Source of the DNA: a virus
Virus record (IMG/VR): IMGVR_UViG_3300037460_000303
Location: 1 to 37,832 of that record
Reading direction: 5' to 3' (one strand)
Length of the DNA stretch: 37,832 nt
The notes below the pieces were generated by a model, which saw only the letters and a program-made list of their open reading frames with translations, made no database searches and was not told where the DNA came from. A program made the position numbers and the translations under genes. This document shows positions 2,896 through 32,390 of the stretch, one piece after another (position 1 is the stretch's first letter; every line of letters begins with the position of its first letter).

Positions 2896-3660
2896 TTAAA
2901 CGTCCCTTTGTTGTTCTAGCGCCCATTGAATCATTTCCTCTTGCTCTTGCATGTGTGCAGGTACACTAGGTTTATTGAAAGTACCTGTTTGGTTTAAGTA
3001 CCCCTCAAACTTTGAGCCAAATAAAGTTTCTGGCCTTAAATATTTTTCTTGATCGGTTCCTTTCCATTCTGCCGACTTTTTGAAGATCACCGTTTTGAAG
3101 TTATCAAAAGTAAACCCCTCTTTGAGTCTTGTATTTATCAATAATTTGGTTTTACCAATATTCGGTTTGTAATTTGATCCAACAATTTGATTTAAGTATT
3201 TTACAATTCCTGTTTGTATTGTATTGTCTTGTTCTGTAGTGTTATGTACTGTAGTGTTATGTACTGTAGTGTTATGTACTGTAGTCGTAGCAAGCCCAGA
3301 GCCTACTCTGGGATCGCTCTGAGTTTGCCCAGTTTCCTCTATCCAAGCGATTTTAGGCCCTTTTAGAAAATCTATCGCCCGCTTAAATGAGTTTTGAGAA
3401 AATCCCGTCATAATTTCAAAATCATCAAAATCGAGAGGCCCAGTTTCATTTTCTAACACCCCTCTCTTAGGCATTTTTGACGCTAATTGTATCAACAAAA
3501 TCCAACAAGAAAATATTTCATTCTTGTTTTTATGTTTGGATAATTTTAGATAAGAAAGCCCGTCCATTTTGTTTGGTAACGGTATCCACTTGTTTTTTTT
3601 ATACCTTCTAGATTCTGCAATCTCGAAGTTTTCATCCCAATTTTTTATAATAAACGTCAT
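2896..3660 (-). CDS. Replication organiser with conserved phage C-terminal domain (Phg_2220_C type)
   Basis: The 254-residue protein has an N-terminal winged-helix-like region (about 1-110, with DFDDFEIMTGFSQNSFKRAIDFL), a low-complexity linker with TTVHN repeats (about 123-145), and a C-terminal domain (about 150-230). The C-terminal domain matches the conserved phage replisome-organiser type: YLNQIVG, NIGKTKLLINTRLKEGFT, and YLRPETLFGSKFEGYLNQ. Such proteins bind the origin and recruit the replicative helicase. The gene follows a 285-base repeat-rich region that may hold the origin or its promoters, and it is followed by a putative partner protein. The linker is encoded by a 15-bp tandem repeat. 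Confidence 0.8.
   Translation of the reverse strand: MTFIIKNWDENFEIAESRRYKKNKWIPLPNKMDGLSYLKLSKHKNKNEIFSCWILLIQLASKMPKRGVLENETGPLDFDDFEIMTGFSQNSFKRAIDFLKGPKIAWIEETGQTQSDPRVGSGLATTTVHNTTVHNTTVHNTTEQDNTIQTGIVKYLNQIVGSNYKPNIGKTKLLINTRLKEGFTFDNFKTVIFKKSAEWKGTDQEKYLRPETLFGSKFEGYLNQTGTFNKPSVPAHMQEQEEMIQWALEQQRDV
3236..3285 (-). repeat. 15-bp tandem repeat in the replication gene
   Basis: The unit GTAGTGTTATGTACT (plus strand) occurs three times in full (3236-3250, 3251-3265, 3266-3280), plus five bases of a fourth. It keeps the reading frame and encodes TTVHN repeats between the two domains. It is a candidate site for copy-number change. Confidence 0.95.
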
Positions 3661-18657: not shown

Positions 18658-19425
18658 TTATTCATTCCAGTAAGCAAGATCTCTTGCAAACGTGATACTT
18701 AAATTCCAATCACAAAAGCCCTGTCGACCCAAATCATCCCATCGAATAACTCGACAATTGAAGGGGCCTAAACCGGCTCTCGTACCAAATGGATATAAAA
18801 TATTTCCGAAGCTTGGGAAAGGTATTTTATTCGCTCTTGCTGTAGTTGATAGGTAACGGCGAATTGCGGCCATTTCGTCACGGTCTTGATTGAACCTAGC
18901 CTGGTAGGTACCGGCTTCAGTACCGTCTTGAGCGAGATGATCCTGAATATAGATATCCTGATCATAAGTGAATAATTTATTCATTTCAAAAACCGTTTCT
19001 CTTGTATCTACATGACCCAAAGTTCTTAAGGTATCAAGCGAGGTGACCACGTTAATAAAACTGGGGTCAACCATTCTCAAGCTTAAGCTCATCTCGTAAA
19101 CTTTAAATGAAACGTGCCTTATTTTACCGTAACCAGTGACAATCACCTTAACGTCGCCAGTGTGGTCCACATCGGCCCCGAATATTTCTTCACCAGAGTT
19201 ACAATTTATGATAAAATTCGCTCGCCTTTGAGCCAAAACTAGCTCTAAATCGGTTAATTCATCAATCGGCCCTCGAAAAGTCACGTCTGCGCTGTAAATA
19301 TCCTCATCAGCGGACCTATCACAGCCTCGCCAGTTTGAATCGGCCCGTTGAGCCCATTTAAGAGATAATTTAGTCTGCGGCTTATATTTCCAAAGCACTA
19401 GAACTGATCGACCATCCCAGATCAT
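18658..19425 (-). CDS. Distal-tail-like protein
   Basis: The 255-residue protein immediately follows the tape measure (ATGA overlap), where siphoviruses encode the distal tail protein. It starts MIWDGRSVLVLWKYK and contains YSADVTFRGPIDELTDLELVL, GYGKIRHVSFKVYEMSLSLRMVDPSF and a C-terminal FCDWNLSITFARDLAYWN, a beta-rich plan consistent with distal tail or baseplate proteins. Sequence homology is not obvious; the call rests on order and composition. Confidence 0.6.
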   Translation of the reverse strand: MIWDGRSVLVLWKYKPQTKLSLKWAQRADSNWRGCDRSADEDIYSADVTFRGPIDELTDLELVLAQRRANFIINCNSGEEIFGADVDHTGDVKVIVTGYGKIRHVSFKVYEMSLSLRMVDPSFINVVTSLDTLRTLGHVDTRETVFEMNKLFTYDQDIYIQDHLAQDGTEAGTYQARFNQDRDEMAAIRRYLSTTARANKIPFPSFGNILYPFGTRAGLGPFNCRVIRWDDLGRQGFCDWNLSITFARDLAYWNE

Positions 19426-21518
19426 ATTAGCTCATGAACCTCAGAATCACGCTGTAATTCGGAAAAACTTTGTATTTGCTCTTGCATGGTTTCTTGAACC
19501 ATTGAGGCAATTTTAACAGGATCGCCGTTTTGTACGTTAATCACTGGGGCCTGAAAGGTAATCGTGTTTCCACCTCCACCGCCTGCCAGAACGCGCTCAA
19601 ACTCTCTGTTTTGCCTAGCCGTGAGAACCCTTTCGCCACCATTCGCTAAAATTGGTACTGAATCACCAGATCTTGGGCCCTCAACTACACCGCCCTGGGC
19701 GAATTTTTGAGAGCTTATTTTAGCCACATTAGCAGCGGCAGCGGCCCCAACAGAAGCGGCCAGTAAAAAATTCAAAGGAGGGGGGGCCGAACCAAGAGCT
19801 TTTTGAACTCCTAATGTGCCGCTTATTACAGCCTCAGTAATTGCGATAGCTTTTTGTGCTGCCGCGAATTTCTTAAATCCCGCTAAAGCGGCCCCAGTAT
19901 TGGCCAAAATACCTTGGGTCGCAGTAATATTAGTTTGTAATCTAGCGTCGGCAGCGGCTTTTTCCATTTCAGCCCGTCTTTTTATCACCTGCCCGACAAT
20001 ATCAACCTCTTTAAAACCGGCTTCCCTCAAAACAAGATTTTTTTGTTTTAATTGATCTTGAAAAATCAACAAATCTTGCTCATCTGAGGATAACGATTGT
20101 CGGCGAAACTCTTCTTTAATCAAGAGCGCGTCTTCAAATAGTTTCATTTCAGTTTCAATAAATTTAGCATCGGCTGCGGCTTTCATATCAGCCTTTTTTT
20201 GTGCCGCCGCTTGTTCTTTTTTGAGTCTCTTTGCTGCCGCCGGGTCTACCGACGAACCGCCTGTAACGTCACCACCTACCGAACCAGTAGAAACTTCAGA
20301 AACCGCTTTTTTGGCCTCTGTCGCACCATTAGCGATATCTTTAAAATGTTTTATAAGCCTAGAGCCTTCAGCAACGGACCCAACACCCTCGTTAAAAAGT
20401 TCGTTACCGGCAATTAGACCTTGGCGACCTAGTTTTTCTATAGCCGAGGTCGTGTCAGCAATTCCATCTTTCCAACCATCAGGAATAAATCTATCGGGCA
20501 ATATTCCTATTAATTTCTCAACACCGCCGGTTATCTTAGATATAGCTACGAAAAACAATCCTACAAAGGAGTTTAATCCACCGGAAATAATTTTAAATAA
20601 AGCGTTTAAACCATTGAAAGTGTCTTTGACTATTGCAAATAAAAATTTAACTGAATTAGCTATTGCATCAAAAATAGCTTTTATCTTACCGCTTTCCTGG
20701 CCCGCAATAAGGAAATTTTTAAACCCTCCGGTAGCCTCTAAAAGCAAAGGTATTATTGCATCACCAAGCAACTCTTGAACATCGCCCAATACATTACCGA
20801 ATTGAATCAAAGGGCCTTCACCACTAAGAGCAACGGCTTTGGCTAATCCTCCAAACTGAGATTCTAATTCTTTTAAAATCAATTTTTGTGCGCTTGCAAT
20901 ATCGCCGGTTTTCTGAAAGTTTTTTATAACATTCTCTTGCTCTTTTGAGAAAGTAATGCCCACCCTACGCAAAGCCGTCAATCCTGTTGTCGGGTCGTTT
21001 AAAGCTTTACCCAGTTGTATCGCGGACTCTTTTACATCAGTGCCCATAGCTGTAGAAAGGTTAAGCATAGCCTCTGTGGCTTGTGGAAATACGTCTTTAC
21101 CTATGCCCTTAAAGGTCAATAACATTGACTGACCCCTCAAGATAACCTCATCGCCAAAAGTGGTTACGTTCTGGAAACCTTGGGCCATTTTTTCAAGCTC
21201 CGCAGTTGTTACACCGGCAGCGCCCCCAGTAGCTTTGATCGTTTGTGCTACTTTAGCAACCGCCGAAGCTTGCTCACCGGCGAGGCTTACCGACTCCTTT
21301 AGTATGCCGTTAATTTTAGAGAAAATGAAAAGACCACCGGCAGCCCCGGCCAGTGTCTTTAAATTTAGACCCAATCCAGTAGAGGCTTTCTGAGTTTTTT
21401 TAAATTCGCTTTGTATCTTTTTGTTAGACTTAACAACATCACTTGAGAATTGTTTTACTTTTTTAGTGGCCCCTTTGTTATTGACCTCAATCCCAATTTC
21501 AACTTTTTTGCTGCCCAT
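19422..21518 (-). CDS. Tape measure protein
   Basis: 698 residues. A basic N-terminal coiled coil (KKVKQFSSDVVKSNKKIQSEFKK) leads into Ala/Gly-rich helical sequence, and a central hydrophobic cluster (FLIAG...IANSVKFLFAIVKDTFNGLNALFK) is the usual membrane-active part. The C-terminal AQGGVVEGPRSGDSVPILANGGERVLTARQN is the classic tape measure ending. It sets tail length; at about 1.5 A per residue this implies a tail near 100 nm. It starts at ATG 21518, overlapping the chaperone stop (TAATG). Confidence 0.92.
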   Translation of the reverse strand: MGSKKVEIGIEVNNKGATKKVKQFSSDVVKSNKKIQSEFKKTQKASTGLGLNLKTLAGAAGGLFIFSKINGILKESVSLAGEQASAVAKVAQTIKATGGAAGVTTAELEKMAQGFQNVTTFGDEVILRGQSMLLTFKGIGKDVFPQATEAMLNLSTAMGTDVKESAIQLGKALNDPTTGLTALRRVGITFSKEQENVIKNFQKTGDIASAQKLILKELESQFGGLAKAVALSGEGPLIQFGNVLGDVQELLGDAIIPLLLEATGGFKNFLIAGQESGKIKAIFDAIANSVKFLFAIVKDTFNGLNALFKIISGGLNSFVGLFFVAISKITGGVEKLIGILPDRFIPDGWKDGIADTTSAIEKLGRQGLIAGNELFNEGVGSVAEGSRLIKHFKDIANGATEAKKAVSEVSTGSVGGDVTGGSSVDPAAAKRLKKEQAAAQKKADMKAAADAKFIETEMKLFEDALLIKEEFRRQSLSSDEQDLLIFQDQLKQKNLVLREAGFKEVDIVGQVIKRRAEMEKAAADARLQTNITATQGILANTGAALAGFKKFAAAQKAIAITEAVISGTLGVQKALGSAPPPLNFLLAASVGAAAAANVAKISSQKFAQGGVVEGPRSGDSVPILANGGERVLTARQNREFERVLAGGGGGNTITFQAPVINVQNGDPVKIASMVQETMQEQIQSFSELQRDSEVHELI

Positions 21519-21874
21519 TAACGCCCCTGTTTAGCCTTCAATTCTGCTTTTATTTTTTCAGACTCTTCTTTGCTTTCTTTTATTTTAGATATCACTCTAT
21601 CACAATATTGAACAATCTTCCAAAACTTTGAATTTTGCTCTAAAAAAGATTTTTCTGTCGGCCATTTGTTATAGTTTTTTAAAACAGTATAGCATTTAAA
21701 ATAAAATTGTGCGTGAGCTGTGAGTAAATTAATTGGGCTTTCTGTCAAGTTAATTGCGCCAATTCCCTCACAATTTTGACACCCTTCACCAACACACGCC
21801 CAACATAATACAGGATATTCCCCGGCTTCGTGCGAATCAATCGCACCCTGAAAAATAGAAGTGAGGATCAGGAG
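21518..21874 (-). CDS. Tail assembly chaperone T extension (made by -1 frameshift from gpG)
   Basis: This frame is open from the slippery site to a stop at 21518-21520 and has no good start of its own, apart from a TTG at 21748. Read through A AAA AAC it fuses to the 126-residue gpG-like protein to give about 243 residues. Directly after the shift come CWACVGEG and CQNCEGIG (fusion residues about 149-164), two exact tandem CxxCxGxG motifs as in the DnaJ zinc finger. The rest is helical and charged (VQYCDRVISKIKESKEESEKIKAELK). It lies just before the tape measure, the canonical place for gpGT. Confidence 0.85.
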   Translation of the reverse strand, partial: LLILTSIFQGAIDSHEAGEYPVLCWACVGEGCQNCEGIGAINLTESPINLLTAHAQFYFKCYTVLKNYNKWPTEKSFLEQNSKFWKIVQYCDRVISKIKESKEESEKIKAELKAKQGR

Positions 21875-22248
21875 TTTTTTAACTCGTCCTCTTCGATATC
21901 AGCCAAAGCCCTTATTTTAGCGCTTAACTCTCGCCTTTGTGCTATTGGTATTTTCCTAAGTATATCAGACTTCCAAGGGGTCATTTTACCGGGATATTCA
22001 AAACCGTCTTTATCTCTAGAAAATATCACTTTTCCAAAGTTTTTTACCTTTTTAAGACCCATGTTTAGAACATGAAGAGAAATAGTTCCATATTGCATTT
22101 GGCCGTTAATCTGTACATTATCATCTAAAAAAGCCTCTTGCTCTATTGTTAGGCTCGTTAGAGTCCAGACTGTTTGTTCTTTTTCTGGTAGTTTCCTGTC
22201 ACAAAGACAGATATACTCAAAATCTGAAAATGATTGTAATGGTTGCAT
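21868..22248 (-). CDS. Tail assembly chaperone, gpG-like
   Basis: 126 residues, beginning MQPLQSFSDFEYICLCDRKLPE. The gene sits between tail tube and tape measure as in lambda-type tails. It ends EEDELKNS, and the last codons overlap the slippery heptamer A AAA AAC (21880-21874) in the zero frame (tta aaa aac). The short form terminates at TGA 21868. The SD AAGGGA is six bases from ATG 22248 and is paired in a perfect six-base hairpin. Confidence 0.8.
   Translation of the reverse strand: MQPLQSFSDFEYICLCDRKLPEKEQTVWTLTSLTIEQEAFLDDNVQINGQMQYGTISLHVLNMGLKKVKNFGKVIFSRDKDGFEYPGKMTPWKSDILRKIPIAQRRELSAKIRALADIEEDELKNS
21874..21880 (-). other. Programmed -1 frameshift site
   Basis: Minus strand reads TTAAAAAAC with frame tta|aaa|aac, so A AAA AAC is a canonical X XXY YYZ slippery heptamer. 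Shifting to the -1 frame gives an uninterrupted reading through the T extension. Downstream stem-loops were not checked in detail. Confidence 0.85.
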
Positions 22249-28288: not shown

Positions 28289-28717
28289 ATGGATTACAAA
28301 AGACAAGATATTAACACACTACTTTCAGATATACAAGGGTTTATGGACTCTTATGAAAGTCTAACTACAAAAATGGAGTTTATAAACGATGTAAGAGAAT
28401 ATATTCATGAAAATGGGCCATTCAAAAATGAACCGGTAGATTTTGTAAGGTGGGTTGTTACAGATGATGTAATAGCTAATGAGTATAACCCTAATAAGGT
28501 CGCACCTCCTGAGATGGAATTATTAGAAGTGAGTATAATGAATGATGGATATACTCAACCTATTGTTACATGGCCTAATAATGATAAATCAGAGGTTGTG
28601 GATGGTTTTCACAGAAGTAGGGTTGGTAGAGAGTCTGCTATTGTTAAAGAAAGGATCATGGGGTTTTTGCCAACAGTAGCTATAAGAAATGAGCAGGCAA
28701 GCAAAAATCAATCTTAA
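28289..28717 (+). CDS. ParB/sulfiredoxin-fold N-terminal domain protein, apparently truncated
   Basis: The 142-residue product has a helical lead and then a ParB-type nuclease-fold core: VRWVVTDDVIANEYNPNKVAPPEMELLEVSIMNDG, YTQPIVTWPN, and VVDGFHRSRVGRES. Phage proteins of this type usually continue after a stretch like GFLPTVAIRN into TIRHNRARG and a helical domain. Here the frame stops at ASKNQS, so the C-terminal part seems lost, right where the methyltransferase segment begins. The SD AAGGAGAG precedes ATG 28289. Confidence 0.7.
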   Translation: MDYKRQDINTLLSDIQGFMDSYESLTTKMEFINDVREYIHENGPFKNEPVDFVRWVVTDDVIANEYNPNKVAPPEMELLEVSIMNDGYTQPIVTWPNNDKSEVVDGFHRSRVGRESAIVKERIMGFLPTVAIRNEQASKNQS

Positions 28718-28811
28718 AGGATTTCCAACTGATTCAAAACCCGAATAATTGTGGAGACAATAAAACCTAAGCTACTTATCAATTTAATATGGAACAAAAG
28801 GGAGTTAGTTT

Positions 28812-28871
28812 ATGGCTTGTAGCGATGGCAAAATTTCTATCTTTTTAAAAATGTTCCAAACTGTCAGGTAA
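28812..28871 (+). CDS. Possible 19-residue leader peptide
   Basis: ATG 28812 has SD GGGAG and runs 20 codons (stop at 28869-28871), within the 247-base gap between the ParB-like gene and the methyltransferase. It ends inside a short hairpin with a T-run. It could be a leader or a remnant of a lost gene; not recognised. Confidence 0.25.
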   Translation: MACSDGKISIFLKMFQTVR

Positions 28872-28889
28872 ACCACCTAGGTTTATTTT
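28869..28889 (+). terminator. Weak rightward terminator
   Basis: TAAACC, loop ACCTA, GGTTTA, then TTTT. The stem is only six bases and AT-rich, so its efficiency is doubtful. It would separate the ParB-like gene from the methyltransferase promoter. Confidence 0.35.
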
Positions 28890-28921
28890 AAAGAACAAAA
28901 CCTGTAAATTGAAATTTATTA

Positions 28922-28951
28922 TTGAGTTTCATTTTAAATAAGAGCTAGTAT
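28922..28951 (+). promoter_or_regulatory. Methyltransferase promoter
   Basis: TTGAGT (28922-28927), 18 bases, TAGTAT (28946-28951). It lies about 30 bases before the TTG start of the methyltransferase and is consistent with the gene being its own transcription unit. Confidence 0.5.
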
Positions 28952-28982
28952 TTTTTAAACATTATTGAAGAGGCTAACGAAC

Positions 28983-29984
28983 TTGAAAAGTAAAACAAAA
29001 AAACCTATTACTTTTATTGATTTATTTGCCGGTATTGGTGGGTTTCGATTGGCCTTTGAAAAATATGGTGGCAAATGTGTTTTTTCAAGTGAATGGGATA
29101 AATACGCTCAACAAACATATGAATATAATTTTGGTGAAAAACCTCATGGCGATATTTGTGAAATAAACAAAAGCGACATTCCTAAACATGATATTCTTTG
29201 TGGGGGATTTCCATGTCAACCTTTTTCTCTAGCAGGTGTCTCCAAAAAAAACTCAATGGGGCGAGAACACGGTTTTAAAGATAAAACCCAAGGCACCTTA
29301 TTTTTTGAAATTAAAGAAATCCTTCGGCTTAAGAGACCTAAGGCATTTATGCTAGAGAATGTAAAGAATTTAATTTCACACGATAGTGGCAAAACTTTTA
29401 AAACGATAATGGAATCCCTTGAGGACGATTTGAACTACACAGTAAATTGGAAAGTTGTGGACGGGTCAAAATGGGTTCCACAACACCGTGAAAGGATTTT
29501 TATTGTTGGGTATGACAATAATAGATTTGACCTCACTAAAGATATGATTAAAATTCCTGATAGACCAAATGCTCGCTATGTCTATAAACCTTTAAATGAA
29601 ATAATTAAAAAAGATGTTGAAGGGTATACTGTTGGTCCTGGAACTTGGGATACACTTGTTAGACATAAAAAACATCATGCTTTAAAAGGAAATGGATTTG
29701 GCTATGGGTTACATTCTATACCGATCCAAAATGATGTAATTACAAGGACCATTTCTGCTAGATATCATAAAGATGGCGCAGAAGTGCTGATTGAACAGCC
29801 AGGTAATAGACCAAGAAGGTTGACTATTGAAGAGGCAATGCAGCTACAGGGCTATGATCCTAAAAGTTTTCATTTTCCAGTTTCTATGACCCAATCGTAC
29901 AGACAAATAGGCAATAGCGTTGTAGTGCCTGCTGTCAAGGCCACAGCAAATGAGATCATCAAACTTTTAAAAAAACTAGCATAG
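28983..29984 (+). CDS. DNA C5-cytosine methyltransferase
   Basis: All main C5-methylase motifs are present in order: motif I FIDLFAGIGGFRLAFE, motif IV GGFPCQPFSLAG (catalytic Cys78), motif VI LENVKNL, motif VIII QHRERIFIVGYD, then a target-recognition region and motifs IX-X (RPRRLTIEEAMQLQGYD, QIGNSVVVPAVKA). It transfers a methyl group from SAM to cytosine C5. TTG 28983 is preferred because AAGAGG lies nine bases upstream; an in-frame TTG at 28965 has no SD. The product has 333 residues. No restriction endonuclease is adjacent; the next gene is a helicase fragment. The recognition sequence is unknown. Confidence 0.92.
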   Translation: MKSKTKKPITFIDLFAGIGGFRLAFEKYGGKCVFSSEWDKYAQQTYEYNFGEKPHGDICEINKSDIPKHDILCGGFPCQPFSLAGVSKKNSMGREHGFKDKTQGTLFFEIKEILRLKRPKAFMLENVKNLISHDSGKTFKTIMESLEDDLNYTVNWKVVDGSKWVPQHRERIFIVGYDNNRFDLTKDMIKIPDRPNARYVYKPLNEIIKKDVEGYTVGPGTWDTLVRHKKHHALKGNGFGYGLHSIPIQNDVITRTISARYHKDGAEVLIEQPGNRPRRLTIEEAMQLQGYDPKSFHFPVSMTQSYRQIGNSVVVPAVKATANEIIKLLKKLA

Positions 29985-29996
29985 TTAACTAATTAA

Positions 29997-30590
29997 ATGG
30001 ATGTAGCAACCTGGCATATAGTTGATAACACATTAGTGCTAAAAAGTAATGGACTGCTTTACCAGCCGACTTCGAGTGAAATAGTTGGAATTCAATTTAA
30101 AAATAAACCTATAAAAACAGACGGCCATCAGCTTTGTGAGAAACCTTCCCGACATTTACCTAAACTAAAACTTCATAGGTTTCCACTACCAATTAGGCTA
30201 GTAATAAGATTCTCAAGAAGCCGTACTACCAAGCCACAAGTAGGAATAATCGCCAAACTGAGACAATCAGAAATAAAGGTGGAGGATTCTAATTATGACC
30301 ATTTAATTTATGAAAACGAATGGCATCCACTGGACAACGATAGTTTAACAGATATTAAAAAAGTTCTAGTTGAATGTGAAGTTAAGCAGCTTACAAATAT
30401 AACGATGAAACAATGTTTGTCATTAATGAAATCTGGTAGCGATTTAATTGCAATAGAATATACAGATGTTCAAGGGAATAACTCCCCTACTACACTTAGC
30501 GAATTTGATACAAATAAAATTGATGCAACATTATATCCCTACCAAACTAGTGGGGTAAATTGGCTGTTCAATGGTTTGGCGATGAGATAG
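29997..30590 (+). CDS. SNF2-type helicase N-terminal fragment
   Basis: The 197-residue product has an N-terminal domain of unknown fold. It ends with ATLYPYQTSGVNWLFNGLAMR, which matches the start of SNF2 helicases (L-x-PYQ-x2-GV-x-WL, Q-motif region). The Walker A motif and all later helicase motifs are missing because the frame stops here, and the downstream bases continue a different frame. No SD is visible, and it lies 12 bases after the methyltransferase. It may be the remains of a methylase-helicase locus. I could not identify the intact system. Confidence 0.6.
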   Translation: MDVATWHIVDNTLVLKSNGLLYQPTSSEIVGIQFKNKPIKTDGHQLCEKPSRHLPKLKLHRFPLPIRLVIRFSRSRTTKPQVGIIAKLRQSEIKVEDSNYDHLIYENEWHPLDNDSLTDIKKVLVECEVKQLTNITMKQCLSLMKSGSDLIAIEYTDVQGNNSPTTLSEFDTNKIDATLYPYQTSGVNWLFNGLAMR

Positions 30591-30694
30591 AGAATGGAAA
30601 CGGAAATATTGAATATGATGAGTTAGAACTAATCTATAAAAAACTCCTATCCAAACCAACAGAACCAGACACCACAGACAAGGGAGGGGGGTAG
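30551..30694 (+). pseudogene. Remnant of a small phage gene, 3' part
   Basis: A frame different from the helicase fragment is open from after TAG 30548 to TAG 30692-30694. It reads VQWFGDEIENGNGNIEYDEL and ends LIYKKLLSKPTEPDTTDKGGG, which looks like real protein. Only a TTG at 30560 with weak SD could start it. Most likely it is the end of a phage gene whose 5' part was replaced by the helicase fragment. Its last codons (GGGAGGGGGG) supply the SD for the next ORF. Confidence 0.45.
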
Positions 30695-31222: not shown

Positions 31223-31435
31223 ATGAAGAGAATGGATATAGACGCACTAAGACAAGCACACGAAAAGCTAAAGAGGAAAAGTCTGAAGCAAAGGGACCGC
31301 ATCAAGGAACTGGAAGAAGGATTAGAAGGGTTAATTAAATTTAGCGAAGATGAAAAGCAAGAGGGGATGGTGGGTTATAACTCCGGCCTGATAATCATGA
31401 GTTTAGCAGTATCTAGACTTTTAACCCAAGGATAG
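31223..31435 (+). CDS. Coiled-coil protein, 70 residues
   Basis: The N-terminal 45 residues form a charged coiled coil (HEKLKRKSLKQRDRIKELEEGLEGLIKF). Two starts are possible: ATG 31223, very close to AAGGAG, or ATG 31232. No family recognised. Confidence 0.6.
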   Translation: MKRMDIDALRQAHEKLKRKSLKQRDRIKELEEGLEGLIKFSEDEKQEGMVGYNSGLIIMSLAVSRLLTQG

Positions 31436-31445
31436 GTAAACAAAG

Positions 31446-31748
31446 ATGAGAGAGATAAAATTATACCACTACAGAATAGGCTACATACCCTTTAATAAGA
31501 CCGGAAAAAAGAACCTTGTAACTATAGTCGATAAATCAAAAGATTACGTGCATAGACAGTTTATGGAAGATCCAATTTCGTTTGCCAATAGATTAAGCAA
31601 AATATTTCACATCCCAGGCCAGTTTTTTTCGTTTGATCTAGAAGATATTACCATAAACGGTGAATCAATAATTACAAAGGAAATGCGAGAATCTAGAATA
31701 ACTATACAAATGAAACTAATGGAGACAACAAAATGGCAGACAAAATAG
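31446..31748 (+). CDS. Hypothetical protein, 100 residues
   Basis: Starts REIKLYHYRIGYIPFNKTGKK and continues as mixed alpha/beta. ISFANRLSKIFHIPGQFFSF suggests a helix followed by a hydrophobic strand. Its last 16 bases overlap the next gene in another frame. Not recognised. Confidence 0.6.
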   Translation: MREIKLYHYRIGYIPFNKTGKKNLVTIVDKSKDYVHRQFMEDPISFANRLSKIFHIPGQFFSFDLEDITINGESIITKEMRESRITIQMKLMETTKWQTK

Positions 31749-32035
31749 AAATACCTGAAGAGGTGAAGCTAATCGTAAAGGATTATTATGAGTATAAACA
31801 GAAGGAATCAACAATTAATAATGTTGGCCCTGTTTATGAGTTCTTAAACGACCTCATACAGAAACAAGACAACGAGATCAAGGTTGGGGATTGGTACTAT
31901 AGGAAAGAAAACCAAGGGTTTACATTCCACCACTGTGATATTTCAAGCGAAGGTGTTAACGCCAACACCGACACAAACATCCACAAAGCCCCTAAAGAAC
32001 TAATACCAGGGCTTGAGAAGTTGAGGGGGGAATAA
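31733..32035 (+). CDS. Small protein, paralogue of the 32415-32708 product
   Basis: 100 residues. After a helical start (EEVKLIVKDYYEYK) comes IKVGDWYYRKENQGFTFHHCD, whose GD-W/F-Y/F-Y...G...C pattern recurs in the protein at 32415-32708, pointing to a duplicated small phage family. The stop overlaps the next ATG (TAATG). No function known. Confidence 0.65.
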   Translation: MADKIEIPEEVKLIVKDYYEYKQKESTINNVGPVYEFLNDLIQKQDNEIKVGDWYYRKENQGFTFHHCDISSEGVNANTDTNIHKAPKELIPGLEKLRGE

Positions 32036-32235
32036 TGGAAAAGCGATTTAACTTATACTTAGATATTTATGAAGGGTTTGATTGTCAATACGCCTGTGCT
32101 TATTCAAATCCTGGTCAAGAAATTCCAAAAGGATGGAGGCGTGTAAAAATACCCGTTATTCTGCCTGATGATGCAATGGAGTTTATTAAAGCTGATTTCA
32201 AAACTGAAGAGGTAACAGCAGTAGAGGCGAAATGA
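32035..32235 (+). CDS. Hypothetical protein, 66 residues
   Basis: TAATG overlap with the previous gene; SD GAGGGGG. It reads RFNLYLDIYEGFDCQYACAYS then PKGWRRVKIPVILPDDAMEFIKA, a compact alpha/beta sequence. Overlaps the next ORF by ATGA. Not recognised. Confidence 0.6.
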   Translation: MEKRFNLYLDIYEGFDCQYACAYSNPGQEIPKGWRRVKIPVILPDDAMEFIKADFKTEEVTAVEAK

Positions 32236-32390
32236 CTTTAACTTTACAAGGAGTAGTGGCACCAGAAGGTAGGTGTGGAAGGGCTCGAACCCTGATTACC
32301 AAAGTGTGGGATGACTATACTAGTTGTCGGTGGAAAGTGCTACTTAGTTTAGTACATCGATCTAGACAATTTCCTGCCTACTCTTTGTAA
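32232..32390 (+). CDS. Small basic protein, 52 residues
   Basis: ATG 32232 overlaps the preceding stop (ATGA). The product (LQGVVAPEGRCGRARTLITK in the first half, SCRWKVLLSLVHRSRQF later) is basic with two Cys. The segment at 32281-32293 looks like a tRNA T-arm on the opposite strand, but this reading frame explains the sequence better. Confidence 0.5.
   Translation: MTLTLQGVVAPEGRCGRARTLITKVWDDYTSCRWKVLLSLVHRSRQFPAYSL

What the first reader, a model, noticed from the sequence alone, without database searches (positions are those of the whole stretch)
28289..30694. C5-methylase plus cut-off SNF2 helicase inserted between damaged phage genes
The ParB-like gene stops early exactly before the methylase segment, and the frame after the helicase fragment (30551-30694) looks like the end of a phage gene without its start. 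The helicase stops just after its PYQ-x2-GV-x-WL motif, before Walker A. This looks like acquisition of part of a host methylase-helicase defence or modification locus, keeping the methylase as protection and breaking the effector. The N-terminal domain before the SNF2 part (about 175 residues) is not one I recognise.
Basis: partly seen in the sequence, partly recalled or inferred. Interest (0 to 1): 0.72.

Follow-up and report, generated by a model that had tools for sequence, protein, structure and literature searches.

The report
Phage with captured, cut-off methylase locus
A Mu-like phage has lost a conserved two-gene module and carries in its place a 1.85-kb piece of a bacterial restriction-modification locus, with the DNA-methylating gene whole and the helicase cut off before its motor, so the phage probably uses the methylase to shield its DNA; this looks like a very recent case of a known kind of event.

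Summary
Four near-identical phage contigs (98-100% identity) lack the methylase. Two of them span both junctions and carry a complete ParB-like gene (IbrB, 383 aa), an IbrA/PAPS-reductase gene and two small genes. In the window, 2,509 bp of that are gone and 1,840-1,855 bp of foreign DNA stand there. The left break is at 28708|28709. The right break lies in an 8-bp microhomology, 30556-30563. Full-length IbrB is the rule: 78 of 79 relatives; the exception is the same phage in another contig, which repeats the left junction. The foreign piece is a complete Dcm/EcoRII-type C5 methylase plus the first ~190 residues of an SNF2 helicase, ending before Walker A. The same dcm-SNF2 order stands in Legionella shakespearei in front of EcoRII-N/B3, MORC-type ATPase, HNH and Vsr genes. 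That is the MORC/SNF2 restriction-modification type predicted by Iyer et al. 2008. Expected target: CCWGG. The phage has 54 such sites outside the insert and no avoidance, so self-methylation could protect it. Catalysis, specificity and benefit are inferred. A chimeric assembly is not fully excluded, because only the left junction is seen twice.

The parts
28289..28708 (+). Remnant of IbrB (ParB-like): residues 1-140 of a 383-aa protein; two foreign residues (QS) and a stop follow
   Evidence: 97.99-100% DNA identity to L003-L006 up to 28708, where those continue into intact IbrB; 78/79 relatives full length
28708..28709 (.). Left junction
   Evidence: Identity to insert-free relatives ends here; the same junction is in contig L002/L179, IMGVR_UViG_3300043170_000049
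28709..28982 (+). Foreign non-coding leader upstream of the methylase; no frame resembles the N-terminal extension of other Dcm-type methylases
   Evidence: Three-frame translation; no Rfam family or tRNA; only chance-level promoter matches
28983..29984 (+). Complete C5-cytosine methyltransferase (333 aa from the TTG at 28983, 339 aa from 28965), Dcm/EcoRII type, likely CCWGG
   Evidence: PF00145 6e-83; PADLOC MTase_II 414 bits, DrmMII 398 bits; PCQ, ENV and GNS motifs and the GNGFGYG target-recognition core shared with E. coli Dcm; 73% identity to Legionella shakespearei
29997..30563 (+). 5' fragment of an SNF2 helicase gene (residues 1-189), ending just before Walker A
   Evidence: 24-28% identity over residues 6-190 to L085, L161 and L198, and over 57-190 to L082; alignment
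30556..30563 (.). Right junction: 8-bp microhomology TAAATTGG between the helicase gene and the phage gene
   Evidence: a random join shares 8 bp or more with frequency 0.00024
30560..30694 (+). Remnant: last 44 codons of a 126-aa phage ORF of unknown function that has lost its start
   Evidence: Complete in L003:8695-9075 and in L004

Best explanation
In a single lineage of a Mu-like phage, and very recently, illegitimate recombination replaced 2.5 kb (most of ibrB, all of ibrA, two small ORFs) with about 1.85 kb from a bacterial MORC/SNF2-type restriction-modification locus. The piece holds the locus's whole Dcm-type methylase gene and the 5' end of its SNF2 helicase gene. Shown by sequence: both junctions against near-identical insert-free relatives, the intact methylase frame, the helicase ending before its ATPase core, and the origin family. 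Inferred: the methylase is expressed in the phage and methylates CCWGG in phage DNA, so the phage resists EcoRII/MORC-type restriction. The helicase stub is an inactive by-product. No selective retention has been shown.
For: Flanks are 97.99-100% identical to insert-free contigs, and the right flank is 100% identical to L003/L004 for over 850 bp past the junction. The truncation is unique to this lineage. The left junction is present in a second contig, 99.978% identical over 17.9 kb. Methylase domain and motifs are complete. Legionella L085 has dcm followed at once by SNF2, EcoRII-N/B3, MORC-type HATPase, HNH and Vsr. Five further loci carry the same gene set. Most close methylase relatives sit beside an EcoRII endonuclease and often Vsr. 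54 CCWGG sites lie outside the insert, and the count over the whole window is 57 against about 47 expected. A precedent for protection exists: loss of the plasmid pKAZ3 dcm increased EcoRII restriction about 2,700-fold (PMC11602122). The phage encodes a Sak4-like annealing protein.
Against: No reads, expression or methylation data. The right junction is seen in only one assembly. The second contig ends 192 bases into the insert. Specificity is inferred: the target-recognition domain is only 27% identical to Dcm, although its core motif is kept. The donor DNA itself was not found, so the left breakpoint on the donor side is unknown. No promoter stands out.
Confidence: 0.62

Rival explanations
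1. Chimera: the contig joins phage DNA to bacterial DNA by template switching during amplification, or by misassembly, at short matching sequences.
For: The right junction is an 8-bp microhomology and appears in no other viral contig. The second contig ends inside the insert. One contig (L005) is 100% identical over 3.1 kb of the left flank but has no insert.
Against: The left junction is repeated in a second contig that differs elsewhere by four bases. 8 bp is shorter than usual assembly k-mers. The contig carries both flanks and overlapping ends. The phage population shows another similar event: an 8-bp-repeat deletion of window 31419-32359 in L003 and L004.
Confidence: 0.17
2. Real replacement, but passive: the methylase is cargo in a defective or short-lived variant and gives no benefit.
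For: Two flanking genes are broken, the event is too young to show selection, the donor's own promoter may not work in the phage's host, and a TTG start is likely.
Against: The methylase frame and all its motifs are intact. The phage keeps its head, packaging and tail genes. The lineage is in two contigs.
Confidence: 0.18
3. Part of a defence cassette carried on purpose, with the 142-aa ParB-like and 197-aa helicase-like proteins as functional short proteins.
For: Phages and prophages often carry defence genes (general knowledge).
Against: Short versions occur in no other phage. The helicase stub ends in out-of-frame phage sequence and has no ATPase motif.
Confidence: 0.03

Closest known systems
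MORC/SNF2-type restriction-modification loci (Iyer, Abhiman and Aravind 2008, PMC2292703)
   Same: The donor's gene family: dcm methylase plus SWI2/SNF2 helicase, with HNH or EcoRII-like nuclease, a DNA-binding protein linked with EcoRII-like enzymes, MORC GHKL ATPase and Vsr in the intact relatives.
   Different: The window holds only the methylase and a helicase stub; no ATPase, nuclease, B3 or Vsr gene was seen beside it.
Orphan Dcm/EcoRII-type methylases on phages and plasmids (such as the dcm genes of plasmid pKAZ3, PMC11602122)
   Same: A C5 methylase without its endonuclease on a mobile element, likely with CCWGG specificity.
   Different: Here the scar of capture is still visible: a partial donor neighbour and two broken recipient genes.
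DISARM methylase DrmMII
   Same: The methylase scores 398 bits against DrmMII PDLC02653, and DISARM is reported to modify CCWGG (PMC11676413).
   Different: The neighbouring helicase is not DrmD: intact relatives sit with MORC, HNH and EcoRII-N, and the Legionella helicase scores best against ZorD.

Membership tests
Dcm/EcoRII-type C5 methyltransferase | Complete PF00145 domain with PCQ, ENV and GNS motifs | tested here: met
   Profile 1-324 of 324, E 6e-83; motifs
Dcm/EcoRII-type C5 methyltransferase | Target-recognition domain like that of CCWGG enzymes | tested here: inconclusive
   GNGFGYG core shared with E. coli Dcm and EcoRII-linked enzymes, but only 27% identity to Dcm over the domain
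Dcm/EcoRII-type C5 methyltransferase | Methylates the second C of CCWGG | not testable with these tools
   Needs expression and sequencing
MORC/SNF2 restriction-modification system | dcm next to an SNF2 helicase of this family | tested here: met
   Same order as Legionella L085; N-terminal region aligned with relatives from several phyla
MORC/SNF2 restriction-modification system | Functional SNF2 ATPase core | tested here: not met
   Stops before Walker A
MORC/SNF2 restriction-modification system | MORC ATPase and HNH/EcoRII nuclease genes | tested here: not met
   Neighbouring ORFs are phage genes; the phage's own sequence resumes at 30556. So the window holds a fragment, not a system
DISARM | drmA, drmB, drmC, drmD or drmE beside drmMII | tested here: not met
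   The flanks are the phage's own genes, shared with insert-free relatives, and the adjacent helicase stub has no DrmD hit

The most novel reading that the evidence does not exclude
The lost IbrB-IbrA pair (ParB-like plus PAPS reductase, conserved in this phage group) is itself a DNA-modifying or anti-restriction module, and the event swapped one self-marking chemistry for another at the same place. That would point to a function for the widespread IbrAB pair.
Probability: 0.15. Interest if true: 0.7.

Novelty: new member of a known kind. Interest (0 to 1): 0.42.

Why it matters
Phages often carry orphan methylases, but how they acquired them is rarely visible. Here the insert-free relatives, both junctions and the donor family are all known, so capture of an anti-restriction gene can be seen almost as it happened, through a microhomology join and without a transposon or integrase at the junctions. 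It also shows that the otherwise conserved ibrBA pair may be dispensable, and gives a natural pair of phages for testing what each module does.

Tried and rejected
Transposon or integron-like capture: no repeats, tRNA or Rfam element at the borders, and the right junction is a plain microhomology. Missing N-terminal extension of the methylase hidden upstream: three-frame translation shows none, and some complete relatives lack it too. Foreignness by codon use: the methylase (-0.98) and stub (-1.07) lie about within the phage range (mean -1.07, sd 0.05), so composition does not decide. Fold of the helicase N-terminal region: pLDDT 40, not usable, no fold search made. PDB sequence search with the stub: none. 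Close helicase relatives in viral and genome contigs by short patterns: none; relatives were then found beside methylase loci and by profile in 1,159 genomes. CCWGG avoidance: none. Exact right-junction pattern in other viral contigs: none.

Full report
What the window is. The window is a virus record of 37,832 bases whose two ends appear to overlap, so it is probably a complete or near-complete genome. It has a Mu-type portal, a Mu F-like protein, a large terminase, a head maturation protease, a tail tape measure protein, an endolysin and a Sak4-like annealing protein. No near relative is in the named-phage collection by DNA; the best portal match there is 36% identical. Five IMG/VR contigs are 98-100% identical at DNA level over the left flank.

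The observation. At 28289-28717 there is a 142-aa ParB-like ORF, at 28965-29984 a C5 methylase, at 29997-30590 a helicase-like ORF, and at 30560-30694 the tail of a gene without its start. In the relatives L003 and L004 the ParB-like gene is 383 aa (IbrB type). It is followed by a 405-aa PAPS-reductase/DUF3440 protein (IbrA type), a 92-aa ORF and a 126-aa ORF, and the end of the last is exactly the tail left in the window. The window departs from them after 28708 and rejoins at 30549-30556. The rejoining sequence is AGTGGGGTAAATTGG in the window and AGTTGGTTAAATTGG in L003. The conserved helicase Trp at 30561-30563 shows that the donor runs to at least 30563, so TAAATTGG is shared by both parents. 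A random join shares 8 bp or more with frequency 0.00024. Thus 2,509 bp were replaced by 1,840-1,855 bp.

Is it a real, unusual change? Among 79 complete IbrB ORFs in relatives, 78 are full length. The one short copy is contig L002 (3300043170_000049), which is the same phage: four mismatches over 17,869 bp, all at 19536-19602. Every contig that reaches far enough carries IbrA near IbrB; the exceptions are L002 and L006, whose contig ends first. L002 has the same left junction and continues 192 bases into the insert. I could not tell whether it comes from the same sample as the window, so it supports the junction but is not a fully independent proof. The right junction was found in no other viral contig.

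What the foreign piece is. The methylase is complete. Its closest relatives in bacterial genomes (up to 73% identity) mostly stand beside an EcoRII endonuclease, often with Vsr. In Legionella shakespearei (L085) the order is dcm, SNF2 helicase (655 aa), EcoRII-N/B3 protein (140 aa), MORC-type HATPase (544 aa), HNH nuclease (278 aa), Vsr. The same set is in a Lachnospiraceae genome (L161), on Agrobacterium and Rhizobium plasmids (L082, L083), in one genome drawn from the class of Legionella (L197) and in one drawn from the phylum of the Muricauda locus (L198). Iyer, Abhiman and Aravind (PMC2292703) described this as the SWI2/SNF2 group of MORC restriction-modification loci; that the HATPase here is a MORC in their strict sense (against a paraMORC) was not tested. 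The window's stub aligns with these helicases from residue 1 to the YPYQxxGxxWL motif at 24-28% identity. It has no Pfam name, shows only a weak match to ZorD (E 0.005), and did not fold with confidence. The donor itself was not found.

How it probably works. Established knowledge of C5 methylases, together with the shared GNGFGYG recognition core and the EcoRII/Vsr neighbours, points to CCWGG (DISARM's methylase, whose family this one also matches, is reported to modify CCWGG). The phage has 54 CCWGG sites outside the insert and does not avoid them, so an EcoRII-type or MORC-type restricting host would be a real barrier and self-methylation would lower it. A plasmid dcm gene does this: its loss raised EcoRII restriction about 2,700-fold (PMC11602122). 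Expression, activity and benefit in this phage are inferred. The helicase stub cannot be an ATPase. It looks like a scar of the junction, not a selected effector knock-out.

How it may have arisen. The microhomology at the right junction and the lack of repeats or integration signs fit illegitimate recombination. The relatives L003 and L004 show another event of the same kind, a 941-bp deletion at an 8-bp repeat (window 31419-32359). The phage's Sak4-like annealing protein could help, although 8 bp is short for it; this step is inference.

Verdict. The event is a replacement of ibrBA, it is young and lineage-specific, and its donor family is already known. It is a new, unusually clear example of phage capture of a probable anti-restriction methylase. 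The main remaining doubt is a chimeric contig.

Noticed in passing
window 31419-32359: 941 bp (several small ORFs) present in the window but deleted in the near-identical phages L003 and L004, with an 8-bp direct repeat (ATCTAGAC) at the ends.
   Followed up: partly
window 19536-19602: The only four differences between the window and contig L179 over 17.9 kb cluster within 67 bp near one end of the tape-measure gene (19422-21518); the adjacent stretch 19709-22243 is also replaced between the window and the contig of L004.
   Followed up: no
L084:578-10014: In Desulforhopalus vacuolatus a close methylase relative (69% identity) without EcoRII follows what looks like a Zorya type I operon (MotA/ExbB-like, OmpA, EH_Signature, SNF2-Mrr).
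   Followed up: partly
L003:6001-8383 and loci L007-L081: The IbrB-IbrA pair (ParB-like plus PAPS reductase/DUF3440) is conserved side by side in almost all relatives of this phage group, function unknown.
   Followed up: partly
window 3211-3285: Five copies of a 15-bp tandem repeat (TGTTATGTACTGTAG) inside the replication initiation-like gene.
   Followed up: no
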